Translations under genes and position numbers: made by a program
From: a virus
Direction: 5' to 3' (one strand)
Virus record (IMG/VR): IMGVR_UViG_3300042882_000576
Coordinates: 1-38,225 of that record
DNA length: 38,225 bases
In this document: positions 82 through 37,424 of the stretch, piece by piece
How positions within the stretch are numbered: position 1 is the stretch's first letter
Layout of the letters: every line of letters starts with the position of its first letter
Notes under the pieces: generated by a model
Database searches by the model: none
Seen by the model: only the letters and a program-made list of their open reading frames with translations
What the model was told of the DNA's origin: nothing

Positions 82-296
82 CCGACGACCAAACCTTGCG
101 CGTTGCCGTGCAGGCGGTGCGTCTCTACGCCGAGTCGCATCCGCGACCTACGCAGGTCACGCAAAAGCAGGCAGCGCAGATGCTGCGCGTCCACCCTAAG
201 ACCGTGCGGAACTACATCATGGCCGGTAAACTGCGGCTCAATGCCTGTGGGCTGATTGCAATCGAGGCCGTGGATGCGCTGCGCGCTCCCCAATAA
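78..296 (+). CDS. Excisionase-like helix-turn-helix protein
   Basis: A 72-residue protein with a MerR/Xis-type winged helix-turn-helix in its second half: TQKQAAQMLRVHPKTVRNYI (about residues 28-47) is followed by a short basic wing (MAGKLRL). This layout is typical of small phage recombination directionality factors and DNA-binding regulators. A good ribosome site (AAGGAG at 61-66) precedes the ATG, which overlaps the stop of the upstream small gene. It lies directly before a repeat-rich segment and the integrase on the same strand, so excisionase is the best guess. A transcriptional regulator of the int operon is the alternative. The DNA-binding fold is fairly certain; the excisionase role is inferred from position. 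Confidence 0.7.
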   Translation: MTDDQTLRVAVQAVRLYAESHPRPTQVTQKQAAQMLRVHPKTVRNYIMAGKLRLNACGLIAIEAVDALRAPQ

Positions 297-360
297 TTAC
301 GCACGACAGGCACGGAACGCTTTAGGTGCTGGGTTTTTGCGTCCGGCCGGGGGCACCACC

Positions 361-454
361 GGCAATATCCGGCAATATCCCCGCCTAGGATTTTGCAGGA
401 TAAACAGCGGCTTTACAGGTCTTTTGCAGCACCGGGCAATATCCGGCAATATCC
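361..454 (+). repeat. Two tandem pairs of GGCAATATCC between xis-like gene and integrase
   Basis: Exact copies of GGCAATATCC lie at 361-370, 371-380, 435-444 and 445-454. The two pairs start 74 bp apart, about seven helical turns. Between them are TTTTGCAG at 391-398 and 422-429 and the related CTTTACAG at 411-418. Paired short direct repeats beside an integrase and a putative excisionase are typical of arm-type sites in attP regions. The core crossover site is not identifiable from this sequence alone. An open frame crosses this segment, but it is the non-coding extension upstream of the integrase start. Confidence 0.6.
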
Positions 455-522
455 CGCAAACTAGACAATCACGCCGCCGTCTCCCCATTATTCCCCCACG
501 CCACTACGCAGGGGGAGCGGGC

Positions 523-1506
523 ATGGCATCAGTGGGTAGGTACGGGCGCGGCTACCGGGCACAGGTCTATGTGAACGGGCGGCGCGCATCCAAGGTGTTC
601 AGGACGCAGCGCGAGGCGTCGGCGTGGGCTGTTGCCAAGGAGCAAGAGCTAGAGCGGCCAGCCGCCGAGACGCGCACGCTACGGCAGTTGCTCGAGCATT
701 ACGCGGAGACGGTCATGCCCGCTAAACGAGGCAGCGCGCACGAAATCAGCCAAGCCAAGGCGTTCCTGCGGGATTTCCCCGATCTGGCTGAAAAAAAGCT
801 GGCCGACTTGGACGCGCCGGACTTTGCTGCGTGGCGGGACGCTCGGCTAAAGGCCGTCAGCGATGCCACGGTGCTGCGTAACCTGAACTGGCTCCGGCAC
901 GCTTTCCGGGTGGCGCGCGAGGAATGGCGGTGGATGACCGGCAACCCGCTGCAGGGCCTACGCATCCCCAGGAACCCGGCCCCGCGCACTCGGCGGGTGA
1001 GCCCCGGCGAAGTCCGCGCCCTGTGCCGCATCCTCGACTACAGGCCCGGCAATGCCCCTCAGACAAAGGGGCAGGAGGTCGCATTAGCCTTCATGGTCGC
1101 CCTGCGGTCCGGTATGCGGGCGGGTGAAATCTTGAGCCTTGGCCGGGGAAATCTTGACCTACGCCGCCGGGTTGCGTCAGTAGCGCACAAGACGCAGCAT
1201 TTGACAGGCAAGCCCCGCGACGTGCCCCTGACGCACCATGCTGTGCGGCTCTTGCGCCCAGTGGCCGACAGGGATGCGTGCTTCACCATATCAAGCGCCG
1301 TGCTGGATACCCTATTCCGCAAGGCGCGCGACCGGCTTTTAATCGAGGACTTGCACTTTCACGACAGCCGCGCGGAGGCCCTGACACGCCTTGCCCGCAA
1401 GGTTGACGTGATGACACTTGCCAAGATCAGCGGGCACAAGGACGTGCGTATTCTAGTCGGGACGTACTACCGCGAGACTGCCGAGCAGATCGCGGCCAGA
1501 CTCTAA
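523..1506 (+). CDS. int: Tyrosine recombinase (phage integrase)
   Basis: A 327-residue integrase that would catalyse insertion and excision of the phage at attP/attB. An N-terminal arm-binding region (about 1-45) is followed by a core-binding SAM-like domain (about 50-140) and the catalytic domain. Visible active-site residues are Arg199 (SGMRAGE), probable Lys223, His280 and Arg283 (HFHDSR), His305 (SGHKD) and the nucleophile Tyr315 or Tyr316 (GTYYRE). The open frame extends upstream to 256, but that part reads through the direct repeats. The ATG at 523 has a strong purine-rich ribosome site (GGGGGAGCGG) and gives the usual length. It is the last gene of the rightward operon and converges with the minus-strand genes at 1570. 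Confidence 0.93.
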   Translation: MASVGRYGRGYRAQVYVNGRRASKVFRTQREASAWAVAKEQELERPAAETRTLRQLLEHYAETVMPAKRGSAHEISQAKAFLRDFPDLAEKKLADLDAPDFAAWRDARLKAVSDATVLRNLNWLRHAFRVAREEWRWMTGNPLQGLRIPRNPAPRTRRVSPGEVRALCRILDYRPGNAPQTKGQEVALAFMVALRSGMRAGEILSLGRGNLDLRRRVASVAHKTQHLTGKPRDVPLTHHAVRLLRPVADRDACFTISSAVLDTLFRKARDRLLIEDLHFHDSRAEALTRLARKVDVMTLAKISGHKDVRILVGTYYRETAEQIAARL

Positions 1507-1788: not shown

Positions 1789-3035
1789 GCCGCGCTCCTG
1801 TCAAACATGCCCGGATTAACAGTGTGGCGCTCCACCTCGCCATGCTCACGGTGGAAGACGATGGCTTTCATGGACTGCCGGGAGCGGTAGCCGTTGGACG
1901 CGGCATAGGCATCGGCCGGCGGCAGGACGCCCAAGGTTTCGACGTTGCAGCCTGGGTACTCTTTGACGGCCTCGTGGTGGACGTGGCCGGTTAACCAAAG
2001 CCGGTACGACGTGCGGCCCCAGGCTTCTGGCTGGTCGGTTGCCATGATGGACGGAAGGTGCTGCGGCTTGGCTTTGTCGCCGTGATGTGTGCCTATTAGG
2101 ACGCGACCCCACTCAAAATAGTGGAAGTGCTGGGGCGACGTATCGACCGAGACACGCGGCTCGTTTTCGTAGAGGACGCCTAGCAATACGGTCATGAATG
2201 CCGCCGTCGCCGGGTCGTGGTTCCCTTTTTCAAAGATCACCCGGACGCGGCCATGCCGCGCCAGCGCCGCGCTAATCATGTGCCGAACCATACGCACCGC
2301 GCATTGGATCATTTTGGGAAACCGCCCGTCCGCATCCAGCAGGTTCTTGTGCTGCGGCGTGACGGCGGCATAGGAATCGTAATGAAGGAAATCGCCCAAC
2401 CACGCGATAAGCGCCTGCTCTGACGGCGGGCATACCTCGATCAGCCGTTGCGAGGCGTCGGCTAAAAGCTGCTCACTGCGGGCCAGATCGTAGTTTTCGC
2501 CGCCTGTTTCCTCGCTCCAGGCGCGCATGCCGACGTGGTGATCCCCGACCGGGTAGACCGCGAGAACGTCGCTCGAAACGGCATGCTTGCCGCGCGGCAC
2601 CTGCTTGGCGCGCTTCACGTCGGCCGCGATGTCCGCAGCGCATTGCTTCCACAGGGCCTCGCGCTCGGCCTCGTCCGCCTTCTCAGTCACCCACTGCTGA
2701 GTAATCGCGCCGGTCTGGTCGTATAGCCGGGAGGTTTTGACGATCTTTTTCGGGTCGGGAAGCTGGACGGTATCGCCTTCGGCCCGGCCGGCGAGCCGCG
2801 TCTTATCCCACCTGCCGCGCTCGTTGCCGTCGCCGTCGTAAAGGACGGACTGCCCTTTCATCACCATGCGCTGGCCGTCTGGTCTAAAGCCCCGGCGCTC
2901 GGCTTCCCGCACGCGGTGTTGAAATGTCGTCCGCGACATCCTGAGATAGTCTGCCGCCGCGCTCTGACTGCCCAACCGGGCCACCGCTTCGACCGCCTCT
3001 TGCAACGCCTCGTCAGTCAGGCTCTGCGCGGCCAT
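1785..3035 (-). CDS. Metallophosphoesterase with N-terminal HTH
   Basis: A 416-residue calcineurin-like phosphoesterase, probably a nuclease or phosphodiesterase with a two-metal site. All family motifs are present in order: GDHHVG (164-169), GDFLHYD (214-220), GNHD (271-274), THHGD (316-320) and GHVHH (350-354). Residues about 12-48 form a Fis/Trp-repressor-like helix-turn-helix (SQSAAADYLRMSRTTFQHRV), so the enzyme may be brought to DNA or may regulate. The segment between (about 50-150) is charged and unassigned. The gene follows Rz1 with a TGATG overlap and so sits at the far end of the late transcript. HTH-metallophosphoesterase fusions are known from phages of Alphaproteobacteria; the substrate is unknown. 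Confidence 0.85.
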   Translation of the reverse strand: MAAQSLTDEALQEAVEAVARLGSQSAAADYLRMSRTTFQHRVREAERRGFRPDGQRMVMKGQSVLYDGDGNERGRWDKTRLAGRAEGDTVQLPDPKKIVKTSRLYDQTGAITQQWVTEKADEAEREALWKQCAADIAADVKRAKQVPRGKHAVSSDVLAVYPVGDHHVGMRAWSEETGGENYDLARSEQLLADASQRLIEVCPPSEQALIAWLGDFLHYDSYAAVTPQHKNLLDADGRFPKMIQCAVRMVRHMISAALARHGRVRVIFEKGNHDPATAAFMTVLLGVLYENEPRVSVDTSPQHFHYFEWGRVLIGTHHGDKAKPQHLPSIMATDQPEAWGRTSYRLWLTGHVHHEAVKEYPGCNVETLGVLPPADAYAASNGYRSRQSMKAIVFHREHGEVERHTVNPGMFDRSAA

Positions 3036-3295
3036 CAGAGCTTTCCGCCTTTCACAAACTCAACGAGGCTTGCGTGCCGGGTTCTACAGGTGACGTAGGC
3101 TTGAGCGACCCGGATACGCTCGGCGGCAATCTCGTTGTCGCTGGCGTTGTCCAGCGCGAGGGTCGGATCAACGCACGGGAGGAGAAGGCTCGCGTCCGGG
3201 GTCCGCTCCACTAGTCGGGGCGATGATGTCCCGCACGCCGACAGAAGCAGCCCGCATGCTAGGACTGGCAGCACACTCACGAGTGACAGGCGCAC
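3035..3295 (-). CDS. Rz1-like outer-membrane spanin lipoprotein
   Basis: An 86-residue lipoprotein. A hydrophobic signal segment (residues 5-20) ends in a lipobox LLSAC with Cys21, followed by small and polar residues, then a short proline-containing periplasmic part. It starts at a GTG (3295) inside the Rz-like gene in another frame, the classic nested Rz/Rz1 arrangement, with a ribosome site AAAGGA six bases upstream. As o-spanin it would pair with the Rz-like protein to fuse the inner and outer membranes in the last lysis step. It has two further cysteines (41 and 70); Rz1 proteins are often proline-rich, which this one is only weakly. The assignment rests on lipobox and position. Confidence 0.85.
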   Translation of the reverse strand: MRLSLVSVLPVLACGLLLSACGTSSPRLVERTPDASLLLPCVDPTLALDNASDNEIAAERIRVAQAYVTCRTRHASLVEFVKGGKL

Positions 3296-3536
3296 TGTAG
3301 ATCCTTTCGGTTACGGTCACGACCTTGGTTTCGAGTTTGGTAAGCGCGTCGGCCTGCTTGCGGACGATGTCGGCGGACAAGCGGGCGTCGGCTTCCTTCT
3401 GGGCGATGACTGCGCTGGCGGCGGCCAACTGCACCTCAAGCTTGCCGTTCTCTGCCCATGCCATTTTCAAGAGGATGCCAGAGACGACCAGCAAGGCGGC
3501 CAGCACGCCCGCGCCTATCGCGAGGTATCGGCTCAC
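3168..3536 (-). CDS. Rz-like inner-membrane spanin
   Basis: A 122-residue protein with one N-terminal membrane anchor (about residues 5-27), then a long alpha-helical, coiled-coil-prone periplasmic region (about 30-80) and a proline-rich tail. That is the usual layout of Rz i-spanins. It starts at a GTG whose first base overlaps the TAG of the endolysin gene (TAGTG). The Rz1-like lipoprotein begins inside it, sharing 128 bp in another frame. The pair would span the periplasm and disrupt the outer membrane after the endolysin has acted. Sequence identity to named Rz proteins cannot be judged here; the call is by architecture. Confidence 0.85.
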   Translation of the reverse strand: MSRYLAIGAGVLAALLVVSGILLKMAWAENGKLEVQLAAASAVIAQKEADARLSADIVRKQADALTKLETKVVTVTERIYSAPVTRECAASPSMRAASVGVRDIIAPTSGADPGREPSPPVR

Positions 3537-4006
3537 TATTCGGCCTCTAGAAACAGCGCACGCTCGGCGGCACGTCGGCGCACAAGCCCCGGCAGAGGCC
3601 CGGAGGCGCCCTTATTCCAGCGCGGGAACTGGTCGGCGGCACCGGATGTGTCTCCGGCATTGAGCAGCCGCAGCAGGGTCGAGTTGCCAAAGGCGGTCGC
3701 GCCGCAATTGAATACGAAGCTCGCCAGCGCATCGAACTGGCCTTGGGTAAGCGGCACGTCCACCAGATGCTTAACCGCGCCCTCTGCGGCCTTCAGATCC
3801 TCGCGCAGCCATTCCGTCGCCTGATCTTCGGTGCAGGTGTCGCCCTTGCGGACGCCGCGCGTGTGGCCATAGCCAATGGTCCAAGGCTCGCCCGTAACCA
3901 GATTTCCGGGGTCCGGGTATGCCGTGGTTTCCAGCCCCTCAAACTCTTTCACAAGGGCAATGCCACGGTCCGACGTGACCAGCAGCGAATTGGCGGCGTT
4001 GCTCAT
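3536..4006 (-). CDS. Endolysin, GH24 lysozyme (muramidase)
   Basis: A 156-residue lysozyme of the T4/P22 gp19 type (glycoside hydrolase family 24), which cleaves the MurNAc-GlcNAc bond of peptidoglycan. The catalytic triad is visible: Glu23 (KEFEG), Asp32 (AYPDP) and Thr49 (IGYGHT). The rest of the domain follows with QFDALASFVFN and the C-terminal LVRRRAAE. A longer open frame runs upstream to 4144, but the ATG at 4006 has the AGGAGA ribosome site and an ATGA overlap with the preceding gene. There is no signal-anchor segment, so export should depend on a holin, and candidate holins lie just upstream. Confidence 0.93.
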   Translation of the reverse strand: MSNAANSLLVTSDRGIALVKEFEGLETTAYPDPGNLVTGEPWTIGYGHTRGVRKGDTCTEDQATEWLREDLKAAEGAVKHLVDVPLTQGQFDALASFVFNCGATAFGNSTLLRLLNAGDTSGAADQFPRWNKGASGPLPGLVRRRAAERALFLEAE

Positions 4007-11025: not shown

Positions 11026-13134
11026 TCACCGTGGTGAGGCGAAGCTGCCGCCCGCCGCACCGGCAATACCGGCGTTGACGGGACGGGCCGCGCCCTGTTG
11101 CTTAAGAAGGGCCTCGATCAGAGAAAGCGTTTCCGCGTTGATGCGAGGGTCTGGATTGGCGAGCAGGTCGGCCAGTTTCGAGCGCACCGCCTCGCTGGGC
11201 TGCCGGGCTTTGGCGTAGGCATCCAGAGCCGCCTGGATGAGCGAGACGGGCGACGTAGAGCCGCCGCCTTGAGGGATCGACAAAGCCGCGTCATCGGCCG
11301 CGGCCGCCAGTCGCTCGGCAGTCGGTGAGCCCGCCAGAACCCGCCCGCGCGTCTCTTGGAACAGTCGCTCGGTGCCGGATTGCTTGACGAGCCGGTCCGC
11401 GACTTCCGGGCCGTAGATCTCGGCCAGCTTCTGCTGCGTGATCTGGTTGTCGGCGATCGACTTGGCGAGACGGCGCGTCGAGTCCGGCCCCTGCGTGGCG
11501 GCGTCGCGCATGACATTGGACGAGCCGACGCGCAGGCTCATCATCTGCTCGGGCGTGGCCTTGGGGATGTCGTTTGCAAGCGCGGCCGGCGAGACGTTGA
11601 TGGCGGCCTCGCCCTGCCCCGAGCGCATGAAATCCTGCCCGCGCTGCATCCATTCCGGCAGGCTTGCAATCTTGGCGTATGCCGTATCCGCTTCCTTGAT
11701 GCCCGGATTGGCCGCCCACAGCGCCTGTTCCCAGGCGTCGCCGGCCGACTTCACCATGCCGCGGTTGACCGCCTTGCCAGACTGGAAGGCCGCGTCGGCG
11801 TTCTGGTTGAGCATACGCTTGACCATGTGCGCCGCTTCCGCCGCGCCGATCTTCACGCCGTATTTCTCGCCGTCGGCGATAACCTGATCCATCGTCTCGC
11901 GGATGACCGGCACGGACCCAAGCAGCTTGTCCATCTCGGGCGAGACGTTGAAGTCTCCGCTTCGCAGCACAGGGTCGTAGAGTTTGCTGCCGCTGCTCGA
12001 CTTGTAGGCTTCCAAGAACCGCTGAGCGTCGGCGATCTGCGGAACCTTCGCCTGCTCGCCCATGGCGCCGAGAAAGCGCGGGCCGGTCTGCGCGTTGCGC
12101 TGGCCAAAAGCCGCCGTGTACTTCTCGCCCGCCTCACCCGGCAGCATCGTGCCAAGTTCGGCAAGGCGCCGCGTTCCACGTGAAGCATCGGCGATGAAAG
12201 CCGAGTCCCCTAGGTCGGTCAGCTTGTCGCGGATCTGGCCGACGCCGCCACTGCGATCCACCTCCAGCGCGAGCCGCTTCAGGGCCGCGTCGTCGGTAGT
12301 CTTGGTGGCCGAGTTGCGGGCCGTGTCCACCATGGACGTGATCCAACTGTCCTGCGCGACACCGCCGCCTTCAGGGGCCGCCGCAGACAGGGGCATCGCT
12401 TTGCCCTTGGGGACGAACCGCTCGCCGATGTCTGCCGCCTTGTTCAGGATGGCGGGGGCAAGTTTCTCGTAGGCATAGCCGAGCCCGGAGCCGACGGCTG
12501 GGAGGGTGCCGCCAACCACGCCGCCAACGGCCGCGCCGGTCTTGGCACCAGCCATCCGCTTGTCAAAACCGCCCTCTCCTTCGCCAAAACCCTGCACGCC
12601 GCCAAGGGTCGCCCCGGAAGCCGCGCCACGCACCATTGCGCCGGGCAAGGAGGTGGCACCGCCGCCTAGTAGGGTCTGACCGCCCGGAAGAAACGAAAGG
12701 GCTCCAGCGGTCGCCAGAGTGCCCGCCACGTTCGCGCCCGTGGTCATCGCCGGATAAGCCGCGGCGTCCGCCTTGGTCTGCGCCCTCTGGCGGGTCAGTT
12801 CGTCTGTGTAGCGCTGATCCTGCGTTGGGGCGTCGGATACCGTCTGCGGCGTTGGGCTGCCGCCAATGCTCTCGTCCCGCTGCAGGGCAGGGCCGCGCAT
12901 CATCCAGTTGGACAGTTCGGGTGCTGCCGAGCGCACGCCAGCCGCCAGTTCGTCGCCAAAGCCCAGCGTTGCGCCTTGCCCGAAGGCATTGGCGGCGGCG
13001 TCGGAACGGCCCTGCGGCTTGCTGCCCTTCTCGCGGGCAAGGAATGTGCGGGCCGCATTGGCCGCCTGTGCAGCGTCCGGGGCGTCCACGACCACCGTCC
13101 GGCCGTCGCCCAGATCGACTTCGAACTCGCTCAT
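11026..13134 (-). CDS. Large internal virion / DNA ejection protein
   Basis: A 702-residue protein with a glycine/alanine-rich, hydrophobic stretch (about 125-225: GATLGGVQGFGEG, AGAKTGAAVGGVVGGTLPAVGSG) of the kind seen in phage ejection proteins that enter membranes. The N-terminus is a small domain with a VDLGDGRTVVVDAPDAAQAA motif, common at the start of such proteins. The rest is helical and charged (about 270-650). It follows the transglycosylase-like protein with an ATGA overlap, as do the ejection proteins of P22 and T7-like phages. By analogy it would be injected with the DNA to form a channel across the cell envelope. No enzyme motif was seen. Confidence 0.75.
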   Translation of the reverse strand: MSEFEVDLGDGRTVVVDAPDAAQAANAARTFLAREKGSKPQGRSDAAANAFGQGATLGFGDELAAGVRSAAPELSNWMMRGPALQRDESIGGSPTPQTVSDAPTQDQRYTDELTRQRAQTKADAAAYPAMTTGANVAGTLATAGALSFLPGGQTLLGGGATSLPGAMVRGAASGATLGGVQGFGEGEGGFDKRMAGAKTGAAVGGVVGGTLPAVGSGLGYAYEKLAPAILNKAADIGERFVPKGKAMPLSAAAPEGGGVAQDSWITSMVDTARNSATKTTDDAALKRLALEVDRSGGVGQIRDKLTDLGDSAFIADASRGTRRLAELGTMLPGEAGEKYTAAFGQRNAQTGPRFLGAMGEQAKVPQIADAQRFLEAYKSSSGSKLYDPVLRSGDFNVSPEMDKLLGSVPVIRETMDQVIADGEKYGVKIGAAEAAHMVKRMLNQNADAAFQSGKAVNRGMVKSAGDAWEQALWAANPGIKEADTAYAKIASLPEWMQRGQDFMRSGQGEAAINVSPAALANDIPKATPEQMMSLRVGSSNVMRDAATQGPDSTRRLAKSIADNQITQQKLAEIYGPEVADRLVKQSGTERLFQETRGRVLAGSPTAERLAAAADDAALSIPQGGGSTSPVSLIQAALDAYAKARQPSEAVRSKLADLLANPDPRINAETLSLIEALLKQQGAARPVNAGIAGAAGGSFASPR

Positions 13135-14921
13135 AGCGGCTTGCCGTCCAGGCTTATGCGCTGGCGCTGGCCGCCGCCGGCCTTCGCGCCGCCGCCTTCG
13201 GCCGCAGGCTTGCGGATAGGGACGATCACGTCCTCACGACGCAGTCCGAATCGGTCGGACATGCCGCCGTAGTGGTCCTCCAGCGCCTTGTAGCTCGACT
13301 CCAGGCCACCGTAGCGGGACTGCGCTTCCTCGATGATGCGCTGCCGCGTCTCGGGGGTGAGCTGCGCGCCACCGTTGAGCGAGTTAATCATGCCCGCAAG
13401 GCGGTCGCCGATGCCCTGCGTGTTGTTCACCATGATCATTTCGCCCTCTCGGACGACCGAGCCGGGGTCCATGATCTTGGCGAGCGCGTAGACCATGTTG
13501 AGGTCGGCCGCGCGCGACGGGCGTTGCACGGCATCCTTCATGCTTTCCATGATCGGCGTGACTTCGCGGTAGTTCTTGACGACCGTCGAGCCGTTGAACT
13601 CGTCCCGCAGCTTGTTGGAGTTGTCGAACTGCTGCTGTGGCGCCTTGGCGGCCTGATCCTGCTGACGGTCGGCGCCCTTGTCGGACCGGGTGCGCCCGTA
13701 TTCGTAGTCGCCCCGGAGGCGCTCATATTCGAGCTTCTGGTTCTCGAAAGACACGTCCAACGCGCGCTGCATGTCGGCGACCATTGCCTGCTCAGCTTGA
13801 GCAGGGTTGGTGCCGTAGCCGCCACGACGCAGGCGATCGATGTACGGCGCGGCCATCTGCTGCGGCATGTCGCGCACCGTCATCCGCTGCGGCGGAACCG
13901 GAGGGGCGCTCATGGTCGGCCCCTGTACGCCCTGCGGCGTTGGCGTGGGAGGCATGCCGTTGGTTTCGGCAGATCCCTGCGGGCCGGGTCCCGGCATATT
14001 GACCTGGAGCGGCTGCGGCTGACCGGGAGGCGTGGCCCGGACATTGACAGGCGGCGCAGCAGGCGGTTGCGGTCCGCCAGCACCCGGCCCGTAAGCCTGC
14101 GCGAACTTGTTGCCGTAGCCTTGGACGGTCATGCCGTTCACATCGGCGGCGCCAGGATTGTTCATCCCACCTTCGCCCGCGAACCACGCGCGAGACGCAG
14201 CTTCCGGGCTGCCGTACTTCTGGACATACTGGCCGAATTTGGCTTGGAATACCGCCTCTTGCGCTTGCGGGCTAGCAAGGAACTCCTGAGGCGACATCGG
14301 CTTGCCCAGCACTTCCTGCGTCCATGCCGGGATGTTGCTATCAAGCACCTGATACTTGCCGTAGGCGCGATTTCCCTTGCTGTTGGCCGGCGGTCCGACG
14401 GCGCCGTACCCTCCATTTGGGCCGCCCTGCGACTCGATCCCGGCGATTGCCTGCCCGGCGTTCCCGGTGCCGCCCGGAGGAGCCAGCGGCCCGGACTGGA
14501 CGCCGCCACCACCACCGCCGCCGTAGGTGCTGGCGACCTGCCCTAGCCCCTCGCGCTGCTGAGCAGTCTTTGCCTGCTCGATCGCCATCTGGCCGGACAG
14601 GCGGATACCAAGCTCGGGATCGAGAGCGGAAATCAACCCGATGCGCTTGGTCGGGTCGGCTTCGCTCATCGCCGCGGTCAGCTTGGTGTTGCGGTCCTCG
14701 GTGGCCTTCTTCTCGTCCCGGTCGGTGGCGTAGCTGTCGTATCCGCCCATCAACGCCTGTGCGAGACGCGCCGCGCCCTGCCACGGGGACTGCACCGGGC
14801 TCGTGTCCATGCCCTGCGCCAGGAGGCGCTGCGCCATGGTCCGGCGCTCGGAATAGGGGTCCTTTTTGCGGCCAATCCCGGCGATTGTGTAAGCGAGGTT
14901 GTCGTCCGGCGCGAAGCTCAT
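13131..14921 (-). CDS. Internal virion protein with lytic transglycosylase-like domain
   Basis: A 596-residue protein. Residues about 155-275 look like a lysozyme-like/transglycosylase domain: catalytic Glu163 in AIAGIESQGG, AYGKYQVLDSNIPAW and AASRAWFAGEGG. A Pro- and Gly-rich linker follows (about 280-360), then a helical C-terminal half. A domain of this kind opens the peptidoglycan locally during DNA entry. The ATG at 14921 has a GGGGGG-type ribosome site. The stop overlaps the start of the 702-residue ejection protein, so the two probably form the ejection complex. On the other side the gene faces the divergent lipoprotein gene. Confidence 0.8.
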   Translation of the reverse strand: MSFAPDDNLAYTIAGIGRKKDPYSERRTMAQRLLAQGMDTSPVQSPWQGAARLAQALMGGYDSYATDRDEKKATEDRNTKLTAAMSEADPTKRIGLISALDPELGIRLSGQMAIEQAKTAQQREGLGQVASTYGGGGGGGVQSGPLAPPGGTGNAGQAIAGIESQGGPNGGYGAVGPPANSKGNRAYGKYQVLDSNIPAWTQEVLGKPMSPQEFLASPQAQEAVFQAKFGQYVQKYGSPEAASRAWFAGEGGMNNPGAADVNGMTVQGYGNKFAQAYGPGAGGPQPPAAPPVNVRATPPGQPQPLQVNMPGPGPQGSAETNGMPPTPTPQGVQGPTMSAPPVPPQRMTVRDMPQQMAAPYIDRLRRGGYGTNPAQAEQAMVADMQRALDVSFENQKLEYERLRGDYEYGRTRSDKGADRQQDQAAKAPQQQFDNSNKLRDEFNGSTVVKNYREVTPIMESMKDAVQRPSRAADLNMVYALAKIMDPGSVVREGEMIMVNNTQGIGDRLAGMINSLNGGAQLTPETRQRIIEEAQSRYGGLESSYKALEDHYGGMSDRFGLRREDVIVPIRKPAAEGGGAKAGGGQRQRISLDGKPL

Positions 14922-14980
14922 GCGCCCCCCTTTCGCCCATCGGCAGAGGCTGCTACCCTGACGTGGGGCAGGAGACGAAA

Positions 14981-15259
14981 ATGAGACTTGGACTTGTGAT
15001 CGTGGCCGCGCTTCTGATAGCGGCCTGCGGTGGCCCGACGACCGCCCAGAAGGAAAAGATGTCGGCGCTTCAGGGCGTTGTGAACGAACAGGTGGCCGCC
15101 GGCAAGATGACGCCCGCCGAGGGCAAGCTCGTCATGGCCCGCGCCCGCGAGGACATCGACGCCGAATGGCGCAGGAACTACGCCCGCATGGTGAGCGGCG
15201 GCGGCGATGGCCCGGCAGTCTACCAGCCCGTCGGCGGCGGCACGGTGGTTCGCTACTAG
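14981..15259 (+). CDS. Small lipoprotein on the opposite strand (moron candidate)
   Basis: A 92-residue lipoprotein: signal peptide MRLGLVIVAALLIAAC with a clear lipobox LIAAC (Cys16), then a mature part with a charged helix (QKEKMSALQGVVNEQVAAG, then AEGKLVMARAREDIDAEWRR) and a Gly-rich end. The ribosome site AGGAGA precedes the ATG. It is the only + strand gene inside the virion block, squeezed between two minus-strand genes with 59 and 5 bp of space. A weak sigma-70-like start (TTCGCC at 14932-14937 and TACCCT at 14954-14959) may lie upstream. Gly at +2 suggests outer-membrane sorting. Known phage lipoproteins in such positions block superinfection; here that is only a hypothesis. Confidence 0.75.
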   Translation: MRLGLVIVAALLIAACGGPTTAQKEKMSALQGVVNEQVAAGKMTPAEGKLVMARAREDIDAEWRRNYARMVSGGGDGPAVYQPVGGGTVVRY

Positions 15260-15264
15260 CGCGC

Positions 15265-16359
15265 TCACGGCAGCGCCTTGCCGTAGTCGACGTATTTCAT
15301 GCCGTCGATCTCGACCACGGCGTCCGGCCGGATCTTCTCCACGTCCTGAGCCATCAGGCCGACGTGCGGGGTGTTGGGGTCGTTCTTGTAGGTGAAGAAG
15401 TAGAGCGGCTGTCCGTCGTCGGTGTAACCAACGCGGCGGACGTTGTCCTTCATGCGGATGTCGGAGCCAGCCATCATAAGCGGTAGGCCGTACTTCATGC
15501 CCGCAGCCAGCCCTGTTCCGGCGAGGCCAAACAGCCCTCCCGTGGTAGCGTTGCCCGAATCGCTCGCCATTTTCTGCTGGGCAAGCTGGCCCTGATAGGC
15601 GTTCCAGTAGTTCCCAGAAACGTCAGTCGGCGCGATCTGGTAATTATTCGTTGGGACGAAGGAAGGCCCCTGCACGCCCTGTCCAGTGCCCAGCAAGGAG
15701 GCCACTTCGTTGATGGGTTGAGAGCGGAGGTTGGCGCGCTCCTGGATGGACCGATCGCGCGTCTGGGCCTCAAGCCCGAACTGCTGGGCCGCCGAGTTGC
15801 CCGCCTGCGAATCTGCCCCAAGCCGGAAGTCGTTTACCGAGCGCCCGTACTGGTCCAGCGCCGTCCTATAGGCAGGGTCCTGCATGGTGACGCCCTGGTC
15901 CGCGAGGCGCTGCTCTAGCTGGGCACGGTCGCGATCCATCTGCGGCTGATTGCGCTGCATGATGGTATCAAGCTGCTGGCGCCGATAGTCCTCGTTGTAG
16001 GTCGGCGCGTCCGGCAGGCCCTCATAGTTGAAGGGCTGCGATGTCGCCTCGCCAATGCGGCCGGTGTACTGCTCCGCGAGGTCATACGCGCCCTGCGTGG
16101 TGCGGGTCTGCGTGTCGTAGAGCTTCTGTTGCTCAGGGGACAACTTGGTCGTTGCTGTCCAGCGGGGCACCCAATTGCCATTCGCGTCCCGGTGTTCTCC
16201 GGTGACATCGTATGACAAAGAGCCCTGCGGCGTGACCTGATTGACGTTGTTCAGAAACGAGTTCGAGACCGTCGTCCCGATATTGGACGCGGTCTGCTGG
16301 TTCGACACCATGCCGGGGTTAGGCGCTTGCGCTGATCCGCCGCTCTTGCTGCTGCCCAT
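15265..16359 (-). CDS. Virion protein with C-terminal S74-type chaperone domain
   Basis: A 364-residue protein: a helical, Gln- and Arg-rich N-terminal two thirds (about 1-260), a Gly/Ala hydrophobic patch (FGLAGTGLAAGMKYGLPLMM, about 275-295) and a C-terminal part SDIRMKDNVRRVGYTDDGQP (298-317), then GLMAQDVEKIRPDAV. This end matches the intramolecular chaperone (Peptidase_S74) of fibres and tailspikes, whose start Ser-Asp is the self-cleavage site (here near Ser298). Its presence on what otherwise looks like an internal tail protein is unusual. The start overlaps the end of the GNAT gene by 41 bp. It may be a trimeric tail component. Confidence 0.75.
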   Translation of the reverse strand: MGSSKSGGSAQAPNPGMVSNQQTASNIGTTVSNSFLNNVNQVTPQGSLSYDVTGEHRDANGNWVPRWTATTKLSPEQQKLYDTQTRTTQGAYDLAEQYTGRIGEATSQPFNYEGLPDAPTYNEDYRRQQLDTIMQRNQPQMDRDRAQLEQRLADQGVTMQDPAYRTALDQYGRSVNDFRLGADSQAGNSAAQQFGLEAQTRDRSIQERANLRSQPINEVASLLGTGQGVQGPSFVPTNNYQIAPTDVSGNYWNAYQGQLAQQKMASDSGNATTGGLFGLAGTGLAAGMKYGLPLMMAGSDIRMKDNVRRVGYTDDGQPLYFFTYKNDPNTPHVGLMAQDVEKIRPDAVVEIDGMKYVDYGKALP

Positions 16360-19128: not shown

Positions 19129-19698
19129 TCAGGCGGCCTTGCGCGGCTTCAGGGCGGTCTTGCCTTGCGCGGCCATCAGCCCTTCAATGGTCCGCTGTGC
19201 CTCGTCTAGCTGGCTCGCCATGGCCTTGATCTGGTCCTCCAGCGTGGTTACGCGCGCCGTGGCGGCACTGCTGTCCTTGTTGGCAAGGAACGCTCTGGCG
19301 GCCTTTTGAAGCTCAATAAAGCCCATGCCGTACTTCTCGCGGATCGTGTCGGTGGCCGACGCGAAATCCTCGACAGAGCGCAGCCCGAGGTTCTTGGCCT
19401 GCTTCAACTGCCCCTTGGTCAGCGACGGCCACGCCTCAAGGGGATGCCCCTCAGTGGTGATCGTGTTCGTGGCCTTCCACTTCTCATAGATCGGCTTCAC
19501 GTACTCCCAAAGCGTCGGGTCGTCCTTCATGAGCCGCCCCACGTCCCACGGCTGCTGATAGTTGGGAGCGCCCTTCTTGCCCAGGATGATGCGGTCGAAC
19601 GGCACCAGTCCGCCCTCTCCGTCCGACTTGTGGTCCGTCTCAATGTCGAGGACGAACACGGCAAACTTCTCGCGGTCTTCTGGCTTGGCGTCGAACAT
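19129..19698 (-). CDS. Structural-block protein with C-terminal coiled coil, unknown
   Basis: A 189-residue protein. The N-terminal part (EDREKFAVFVLDIETDHKSD, then FDRIILGKKGAPNYQQPWDV) is mixed alpha/beta. The middle includes a hairpin-like helical pair (LKQAKNLGLRSVEDFASATD, about 98-117). The end (about 145-178) is a coiled coil, ATARVTTLEDQIKAMASQLD, plus a basic tail. The ATG overlaps the TGA of the glycosyltransferase gene (TGATG). Located between capsid and adaptor genes it may be a minor head or head-completion protein. No family name is certain. Confidence 0.6.
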   Translation of the reverse strand: MFDAKPEDREKFAVFVLDIETDHKSDGEGGLVPFDRIILGKKGAPNYQQPWDVGRLMKDDPTLWEYVKPIYEKWKATNTITTEGHPLEAWPSLTKGQLKQAKNLGLRSVEDFASATDTIREKYGMGFIELQKAARAFLANKDSSAATARVTTLEDQIKAMASQLDEAQRTIEGLMAAQGKTALKPRKAA

Positions 19699-20525
19699 CA
19701 GGCAGCGTCCTTCTGTTGCATCATCGCGCGGGCGCGGGAGAGCGCGGCGATGTATTCGGGTGTCGGCGGGCTGCGGTCGCCCTGCCGGGCCTCAAGATCA
19801 GGCGCGTCGAAGCTGGCGTTTTTTGCCACGTCCAGGTCGTCAAGGTTCGGCACGGGAAGCCAGCCAAGGCGCTCGGCAATCAAGCGCGCGGCTTCCCGGC
19901 GCTCGTCACGGCGCGACCAGAAGAAATCGTCCCAGAACTGCAGATCGCGCATGCGGTGCGTGCCGGGGGCGCGGTCATCAAGCCATGCCTCGATCGGCAG
20001 GCAATGCAGGCTCCCGGTGGCGTAGCGCCACACCTCGATCAGCCACACGTCGTCATACCAGTACGGGAAATAGTCAGTGAACAGGCGCCCGGCGGCGGCC
20101 CTCCACTTCTCGGAAACCACGGGGAACGCGGCATTGTTCGAGCAGCGCCACCACCAGACGCCATCCGGCTTGGCGCGCCATGCCTGCGCGACCGCGTCGT
20201 CCCATCCGTCCGTCTTGACCACGCCGTCATCGCCAAGGGTGCAATAGACATCACCCGGCACGCGCTCGGCCAGCTTATTGACGAGCCCACCCAGCGACGG
20301 AGGCCGGGGGCCGACATAGGGGAACACAGGAAGCCCGCTTGCACGAAGCGCCAGCGCCATGGCGATGGTGTCGCCGTCGTCGGCATCGCAGCCGATGGCA
20401 AAGCGCAGGGTGTGCTTGCCCGACGCCTTGGCCGAAACCGCTTGGACGAACGTCGCCAGTCGCGCGGGCCGTCCCCGGCTGGGGATCAGGACCGAGATAT
20501 TCACGGGCTGGTCTGAATCGGCCAT
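19698..20525 (-). CDS. Glycosyltransferase-like protein (GT-A fold) in the head block
   Basis: A 275-residue protein. Residues 10-30 (ISVLIPSRGRPARLATFVQA) are the start of a family-2-like GT-A domain: strand, then the S-R-G-R-P loop that binds the nucleotide sugar. It continues with CDADDGD (47-52) and YCTLGDDGVV (94-103), where the Asp pair is the probable metal-binding DxD equivalent. The later part has Trp-rich motifs (VWWWRCSNNA, YDDVWLIEVW) typical of the acceptor half. It is the first gene after a strong terminator behind the decoration protein gene, with its own GGAG site. It may glycosylate a virion protein or change host surface sugars. Confidence 0.7.
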   Translation of the reverse strand: MADSDQPVNISVLIPSRGRPARLATFVQAVSAKASGKHTLRFAIGCDADDGDTIAMALALRASGLPVFPYVGPRPPSLGGLVNKLAERVPGDVYCTLGDDGVVKTDGWDDAVAQAWRAKPDGVWWWRCSNNAAFPVVSEKWRAAAGRLFTDYFPYWYDDVWLIEVWRYATGSLHCLPIEAWLDDRAPGTHRMRDLQFWDDFFWSRRDERREAARLIAERLGWLPVPNLDDLDVAKNASFDAPDLEARQGDRSPPTPEYIAALSRARAMMQQKDAA

Positions 20526-36737: not shown

Positions 36738-37424
36738 ATGGGCATTGGTAAGCGTATTGAGGCGGCGATGATCGCGGCTCGAAAGAAGCCGGTCGACATT
36801 GCGCGGCATTTCAAGATTTCCGAATCGGCCGTGTCTCAATGGTTTTCAAAGGACACCGGGCCAAAGGCTACGCGCCTCGTTGATCTGGCCCGCTTTCTGA
36901 ACACGACCGTCGAAGCCCTTATGCGGGAGAACGCTCCTGAGCCTACGCAAAGCAGCTTCCTTCCGCTTCCGCCTACGTCCCCCGCGCCAATCAAAGCCGA
37001 ACAGGAAGAAACATCGACTGAAACCGGCCCCCCCATTCCCGTCTGGGCAAGCGCGGCGGCGGGCGATGGCGACGGATCGATGATCCTCACGTCGGAGCCG
37101 ATTGATTGGATAAAAAGGACGGAACGGACGGCTCGAGTAAAGGACCCGTTTGCGTTCCATATTGTGGGCGACTCGATGTTGGAACGCCTGGCCCCAGGCG
37201 ATCAGGTCATTGTGAGTACAGCCCTACCCCTTCTCCCCATGACGGATTGCGTCTTCATCCATACCGCCAGCGACGGTATGATATATGCTCTTGTAAAGCG
37301 GCTTTTGCGGGCAAACGGGGATGCTTGGAAAGTGCGCCAACTCAATCCCCATCGGGATTTTGAGTTGAACCGTCGCAGGTGGTCGAAAGTCTATCGCATC
37401 GCTGAAATTCGCCCCCGGATGTAG
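36738..37424 (+). CDS. CI-like phage repressor with S24 self-cleavage domain
   Basis: A 228-residue repressor. The N-terminal HTH (MGIGKRIEAAMIAARKKPVD, IARHFKISESAVSQWFSKDT, 1-40) is followed by a linker (65-100) and a LexA/UmuD-type peptidase domain: cleavage site Ala108-Gly109, catalytic Ser146 (VGDSMLERL) and Lys187 (YALVKRLL). DNA damage with RecA would trigger cleavage and induction, so the phage is probably SOS-inducible. The gene runs opposite to the Cro-like gene with AGGA ahead of the ATG. It ends near the right-hand group of CTTAAG sites. Confidence 0.93.
   Translation: MGIGKRIEAAMIAARKKPVDIARHFKISESAVSQWFSKDTGPKATRLVDLARFLNTTVEALMRENAPEPTQSSFLPLPPTSPAPIKAEQEETSTETGPPIPVWASAAAGDGDGSMILTSEPIDWIKRTERTARVKDPFAFHIVGDSMLERLAPGDQVIVSTALPLLPMTDCVFIHTASDGMIYALVKRLLRANGDAWKVRQLNPHRDFELNRRRWSKVYRIAEIRPRM

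What the first reader, a model, noticed from the sequence alone, without database searches (positions are those of the whole stretch)
14981..15259. Inverted lipoprotein gene inside the virion block
The only + strand gene between terminase and lysis is a lipoprotein with clear lipobox, own ribosome site and a possible weak promoter. P22 places its superinfection-exclusion gene sieA in the same part of the genome. It may be expressed in the lysogen and change the host surface or block entry by related phages.
Basis: partly seen in the sequence, partly recalled or inferred. Interest (0 to 1): 0.65.

Follow-up and report, generated by a model that had tools for sequence, protein, structure and literature searches.

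The report
Inverted lipoprotein cassette in podovirus-like prophage
A temperate phage from a group that infects alphaproteobacteria carries, back to front among its particle-building genes, a small gene for an envelope lipoprotein; relatives keep an inverted lipoprotein there but swap in unrelated ones, which fits (but does not prove) a role in keeping other phages out of the cell.

Summary
A 92-aa lipoprotein gene lies at 14981-15259 (+), the only + gene between terminase and lysis. It is coding (sense pN/pS 0.09-0.38, antisense 1.0 or more), keeps its lipobox in all five comparable relatives, and has a good ribosome site. An extended -10-like element (TGnTAnnnT, 30 nt before the ATG) is kept in 6/6 genomes inside variable DNA. 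It is not the spanin, since the phage has its own Rz/Rz1-like pair. No library names the family. New here: (1) relatives fill the same slot with inverted but unrelated lipoproteins (three families), one has none and one has an empty slot; (2) this lipoprotein travels with the S74 domain of the neighbouring virion gene (7/7 with both, 11/11 with neither), across diverged backbones; (3) distant relatives carry inverted small lipoprotein or membrane genes between ejection-protein and tail-fibre genes, where P22 has sieA. Best reading: a horizontally swapped moron making an outer-membrane lipoprotein while late genes are silent, most likely for superinfection exclusion. That function is inferred, not shown; plain lysogenic conversion remains open. 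Llp/Cor and SieA membership was tested on sequence and position and not met. New member of a known kind.

The parts
14981..15259 (+). type A lipoprotein gene, 92 aa (mature 77 aa from Cys16)
15017..15028 (+). lipobox codons I13-A14-A15-C16; +2 residue Gly
   Evidence: sequence; C16 and A15 invariant in 6 genomes, position 13 I/V, position 14 A/G
14951..14959 (+). TGCTACCCT, extended -10-like element, TGnTAnnnT at -30 in 6/6 genomes
14970..14975 (+). ribosome site AGGAGA
   Evidence: invariant in the five aligned genomes; the sixth, L020, reads GGGAGA
15265..16359 (-). virion structural gene (phrog_6121), 364 aa, convergent neighbour
15268..15465 (-). Peptidase_S74 (endosialidase chaperone) domain that travels with the lipoprotein gene
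13131..14921 (-). first ejection/internal-virion-type gene, 596 aa, divergent neighbour
   Evidence: role by synteny with phiGT1
11026..13134 (-). second ejection-type gene, 702 aa (role by synteny)
3035..3295 (-). o-spanin-like lipoprotein (phrog_456 Rz-like spanin): the lysis lipoprotein is elsewhere
3168..3536 (-). i-spanin-like Rz gene (phrog_214, weak)
36738..37424 (+). CI-like repressor
256..1506 (+). tyrosine integrase

Best explanation
A moron: an accessory gene inserted backwards in the late virion operon, with its own promoter, so that it can be read when late genes are off (lysogeny or early infection), while leftward late transcription would run antisense over it. The product is exported, lipidated at Cys16 and, with Gly at +2, probably sorted to the outer membrane, where a short helical hairpin with a conserved C-terminal tail (YQPVGGGTV[VI]RY) faces the periplasm. 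Most likely it excludes superinfecting phages, by holding a receptor in a non-binding state as T5 Llp does, or by catching ejected proteins or blocking DNA entry as Ltp and SieA do. Shown: the gene, its reading frame, lipobox, conservation, slot, mosaic transfer and cassette linkage. Inferred: promoter use, lipidation, location, and exclusion.
For: Relatives with the same gene order hold, in the same slot and inverted orientation, type A (92 aa), type B (71-74 aa) or type C (164 aa, NCBIfam NF047637, E 2.3e-26) lipoproteins. A and B align only over the signal peptide. L065/066 has no lipoprotein there and L062 has a TGATG overlap with no gene at all, so it is optional. The window protein is 91% identical to that of L028, whose backbone is distant (adaptor 46%, S74 protein 69%), but 60% to that of L020, whose backbone is close (MCP 97%, adaptor 88%): horizontal swapping. 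In W against L020 the mature part diverged (pN 0.36) while the C-terminal tail did not (pN 0.03). Distant relatives NYA-2014a, EBPR podovirus 2, L121 and L123 have inverted lipoproteins, and phiGT1, RHph_N2 and L084 inverted small TM proteins, between ejection and tail-fibre genes, the sieA position (PMC10883804). Small phage lipoproteins act as exclusion proteins in T5, T1 and phi80 (PMC9586334) and TP-J34 (abstract of PMC3952083). The phage is temperate.
Against: No significant match to any exclusion protein. No fold match; the model is only fair (mean pLDDT 62). The lipoprotein type does not follow the ejection protein (79% identical to that of type B phage L073, 33-64% to those of type A phages). 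Type B has probable relatives in bacterial chromosomes outside prophages, so some slot lipoproteins may be host envelope genes with other roles. No expression data.
Confidence: 0.45

Rival explanations
1. Lysogenic conversion without exclusion: a surface or periplasmic lipoprotein that benefits the lysogen (stress, envelope, adhesion), in the manner of lambda Bor.
For: Type B and C slot lipoproteins have relatives in bacterial chromosomes or belong to a general bacterial lipoprotein family; the gene is optional and swapped.
Against: Recurrent placement among the adsorption/ejection genes in several phage groups, one of them described as lytic (phiGT1, PMC10386132), suits a phage-entry role better than a host benefit.
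Confidence: 0.27
2. Lytic-cycle helper: an envelope protein used late, for lysis or to stop released virions binding debris.
For: Lies among late genes; the lytic relative phiGT1 has an inverted small membrane gene too (PMC10386132); T5 Llp serves lytic infection (PMC9586334).
Against: Opposite strand to all late genes; the phage has its own endolysin and Rz/Rz1-like genes at 3035-4006; absent from L062.
Confidence: 0.15
3. Hitchhiker: the gene persists mainly because it is physically tied to the S74 domain exchanged with it, with little function of its own in this slot.
For: S74 domain and lipoprotein always occur together in close relatives.
Against: Strong purifying selection on the sense frame; other phages keep a lipoprotein in the slot without an S74 domain.
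Confidence: 0.07
4. Not a gene: a chance ORF in high-GC DNA antisense to a real - strand ORF.
For: A 116-aa antisense ORF is open through the region and open in the same register in relatives.
Against: Codon score and pN/pS favour the + frame and reject the antisense frame; conserved lipobox and ribosome site.
Confidence: 0.02

Closest known systems
Llp of phage T5 and Cor of T1/phi80/N15 (superinfection-exclusion lipoproteins)
   Same: Very small phage-coded lipoprotein, likely outer membrane, separate from the virion genes in expression
   Different: No sequence match above cut-off (Cor model NF047972: 14.6 bits for L020 against cut-off 31; the window protein gave no hit); only one cysteine, so no Llp/Cor disulphide; not next to a known receptor-binding gene
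P22 SieA
   Same: Inside the virion block near ejection genes in a temperate phage with a short-tailed-type virion module, with its own putative promoter; distant relatives have inverted membrane genes at the exact sieA position
   Different: SieA is an inner-membrane multi-pass protein between genes 16 and 9; this is a lipoprotein placed before the first ejection-type gene; no sequence relation seen
Ltp of TP-J34 (exclusion lipoprotein that targets the tape measure)
   Same: Prophage lipoprotein with a small extracytoplasmic part
   Different: Gram-positive siphophage system; no significant sequence or fold match found here
Rz1-type outer-membrane spanin
   Same: Small phage lipoprotein
   Different: The phage has its own Rz/Rz1-like pair at 3035-3536; this gene is alone, on the other strand and optional
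CC0125/CC1285 family lipoprotein (NF047637)
   Same: A member (L069) sits in the same slot and orientation in a relative
   Different: Unrelated in sequence to the window protein

Membership tests
Bacterial lipoprotein (signal peptidase II substrate) | Basic n-region, hydrophobic stretch, lipobox ending in Cys | tested here: met
   R2, LGLVIVAALL, I-A-A-C; C16 and A15 invariant in six genomes
Bacterial lipoprotein (signal peptidase II substrate) | Lipidation and outer-membrane location | not testable with these tools
   Gly at +2 fits outer-membrane sorting by the E. coli rule (general knowledge), not shown here
Llp/Cor exclusion lipoproteins | Sequence match to the curated Cor model NF047972 above cut-off | tested here: not met
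   No hit for the window protein; L020 homologue 14.6 bits against cut-off 31
Llp/Cor exclusion lipoproteins | Intramolecular disulphide (two mature cysteines besides the lipid Cys) | tested here: not met
   Only Cys16 in the window protein; disulphide described in PMC9586334
Llp/Cor exclusion lipoproteins | Expression blocks the phage receptor | not testable with these tools
   Needs a plating assay
P22 SieA | Gene between the homologues of P22 genes 16 and 9 | tested here: not met
   Window gene lies between the S74 structural gene and the first ejection-type gene; position of sieA from PMC10883804
P22 SieA | Inner-membrane multi-pass protein | tested here: not met
   Single signal peptide with lipobox, no further hydrophobic segment in the mature part
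P22 SieA | Own promoter, expressed from the prophage | tested here: inconclusive
   Conserved TGnTAnnnT at -30; no strict sigma-70 match; no transcript data
Rz1-type o-spanin | Paired with an Rz i-spanin gene in the lysis cassette | tested here: not met
   Separate Rz/Rz1-like pair at 3035-3536; this gene stands alone
Known anti-phage defence proteins (PADLOC) | Match to any PADLOC model | tested here: not met
   No family up to E 1
Ltp-type exclusion lipoproteins | Related fold or sequence in solved structures | tested here: inconclusive
   No sequence hit and no Foldseek hit with E <= 0.001 on a fair model

The most novel reading that the evidence does not exclude
The S74 domain of the virion protein and the inverted lipoprotein are one functional unit, swapped together: the lipoprotein excludes phages through that virion protein or what it helps to assemble, so that the pair sets which phages are kept out, analogous to SieA and the ejection proteins it acts on.
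Probability: 0.12. Interest if true: 0.7.

Novelty: new member of a known kind. Interest (0 to 1): 0.45.

Why it matters
Phage lipoproteins that block infection are known mostly from enterobacterial and dairy phages. Here one slot in a phage group that reaches Alphaproteobacteria (Hyphomonadaceae, Devosia) repeatedly receives inverted, mutually unrelated lipoprotein genes. That gives a simple rule for finding candidate exclusion genes (small inverted lipoprotein or membrane genes among ejection and tail-fibre genes) and a ready set of three families plus an empty-slot relative for testing whether they exclude phages.

Tried and rejected
Spanin: rejected, own Rz/Rz1-like pair. Chance or antisense ORF: rejected. 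Family assignment by Pfam, PHROGs, NCBIfam and PADLOC: nothing above cut-off for the window protein. Sub-threshold hits not used: EexN entry-exclusion lipoprotein with EBPR gp30 and L123 (E 0.006, 0.002), Cor with L020 (E 0.024). Fold searches: nothing with E <= 0.001; the VIA-align second look at the type B model gave at best Z 4.7, too low to use. Type A in GTDB bacterial genomes: none in genome contigs, none in 398 of the order of the Hyphomonadaceae MAG, one of 289 of its class, that one lying in a 1119-aa open frame and taken as chance; no positive control existed in those sets. Named phages and plasmids: only chance-level hits. Sigma-70 scan: no site; terminators no more than shuffles. 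Link of lipoprotein type to ejection protein: not seen; link to tail-fibre tips could not be tested, too few contigs reach them. Literature on inverted lipoproteins in podoviruses: nothing relevant found with the terms tried. (pattern search) was badly formed and is not used.

Full report
Check of the observation. The gene is there as described: 14981-15259 (+), 92 aa, with a clear signal peptide and lipobox (I-A-A-C) and AGGAGA before the ATG. Its codon use scores like the virion genes and the antisense 116-aa ORF does not. A gene map of the window shows it as the only + strand gene from the terminase down to the lysis genes.

The phage. Terminase, portal, major head protein, adaptor, a phrog_5107 gene, an S74-bearing virion protein and two ejection-type genes lie in one leftward block. 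The order matches the short-tailed phages phiGT1, NYA-2014a, RHph_N2 and EBPR podovirus 2, found through the S74 protein. An integrase at 256-1506 and a CI-like repressor at 36738-37424 make it temperate. The record is a 38,225-base virus contig; its own host is not known, but the two bacterial genomes with the S74-protein relative are a Hyphomonadaceae MAG and Devosia algicola.

Conservation. Two scans of IMG/VR gave nine contigs with a homologue, 61-91% identical. Residue C16 is invariant. Sense pN/pS among five genomes is 0.09-0.38 and antisense 1.0-2.4. The gap between this gene and the divergent ejection-type gene is 59 bp. Within it, TGnTAnnnT sits at exactly -30 in six of six genomes, after 12 columns without an invariant base in the five-genome alignment. 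This looks like an extended -10 element; a strict sigma-70 scan does not see it.

The slot. Among close relatives (S74-protein N-part 57-92% identical to the window), the interval between the S74 gene and the first ejection-type gene holds: type A in seven distinct backbones (window, L020, L022, L024/L029, L026, L027/L067, L028/L068); an inverted type B lipoprotein, with a + strand gene beside it where the contig reaches, in L054, L031, L058/L071, L059/L073, L032, L070/L072/L074, L076, L078 and L060; a type C lipoprotein in L069; only the + strand gene in L065/L066; and nothing in L062, where the stop and start codons overlap as TGATG. Types A and B align only over the first 25 residues, the signal peptide. 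Type C belongs to NCBIfam NF047637. Type B has probable relatives in alphaproteobacterial chromosomes, most of them weak, and the six contexts mapped show no sign of a prophage.

Mosaic transfer and linkage. The window lipoprotein is 91% identical to that of L028 although the backbones differ (adaptor 46%, S74 protein 69%), and 60% to that of L020 although those backbones are close (MCP 97%, adaptor 88%). The S74 domain of the neighbouring virion protein behaves like the lipoprotein: 91-97% identical (82% in L020) against 63-75% for the N-part of the same protein. It is present in all seven type A backbones and absent from the eleven other close backbones examined, including L062, whose N-part is 92% identical (Fisher p 3e-5, which ignores shared ancestry, but both states occur in near and far backbones). 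So the 3' end of the virion gene and the inverted lipoprotein gene move as one cassette. Adjacency alone can explain this; a functional tie is not shown.

Distant relatives. Inverted lipoproteins lie between ejection-type and tail-fibre genes in NYA-2014a, EBPR podovirus 2, L121 and L123, and inverted small membrane proteins in phiGT1, RHph_N2 and L084. The phiGT1 record itself notes small inverted frames at this position in related phages. This is where P22 carries sieA, between genes 16 and 9 (PMC10883804). L121 carries a type B-like lipoprotein there (A6), so one family can occupy either place.

What it does. The AlphaFold model (mean pLDDT 62) shows a helical hairpin and a short C-terminal beta pair; no library gave a fold match with E <= 0.001. 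The phage has its own Rz/Rz1-like genes, so a lysis role is unlikely. Optional presence, horizontal swapping, replacement by unrelated lipoproteins, opposite strand with a private promoter-like element, and position among entry genes together fit an entry-exclusion function best. Llp of T5 shows how a small lipoprotein can do this from the periplasmic side (PMC9586334), and SieA shows the alternative of blocking ejection (PMC10883804). Which of these applies, or whether the protein only alters the lysogen's envelope, cannot be told from sequence.

Membership. The protein is not a member of the Llp/Cor or SieA families by the sequence and position features tested. It works, if the best reading is right, like them.

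Noticed in passing
19698-20525 (-): Glycosyltransferase-like gene inside the virion block (phrog_14945, E 2e-7); present in L020 and L030, no hit in L029: another optional cargo gene.
   Followed up: partly
L054, L066, L069, L072, L076, L078, L060, between the S74 gene and the first ejection-type gene: A + strand gene next to the slot lipoprotein that looks like a PAPS-reductase-family protein (recognised by eye, not tested against a library).
   Followed up: no
L121:14341-15069 (-): Three inverted small genes in a row (two membrane proteins and a lipoprotein) between ejection-type and tail-fibre genes.
   Followed up: partly
L012:9560-9874 (-), L013:9798-10127 (-), L123:12606-12962 (-): Inverted lipoproteins that look alike by eye (paired-cysteine motif and a C-terminus ending in Tyr), with sub-threshold similarity to EexN entry-exclusion lipoproteins for two of them (L013, L123).
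   Followed up: partly
L016:9874-10104 (-): Unannotated inverted small membrane-type ORF in Sulfitobacter phage pCB2047-C at the same place as phiGT1_20.
   Followed up: no
L028, about 2.4-1.9 kb before the end of the S74 gene (-): An inverted 163-aa gene resembling an HNH homing endonuclease (by eye) in the virion block.
   Followed up: no
L062:3590-3804: Alternative C-terminus without the S74 domain on an otherwise 92% identical virion protein: the S74 domain is itself a swapped module.
   Followed up: yes
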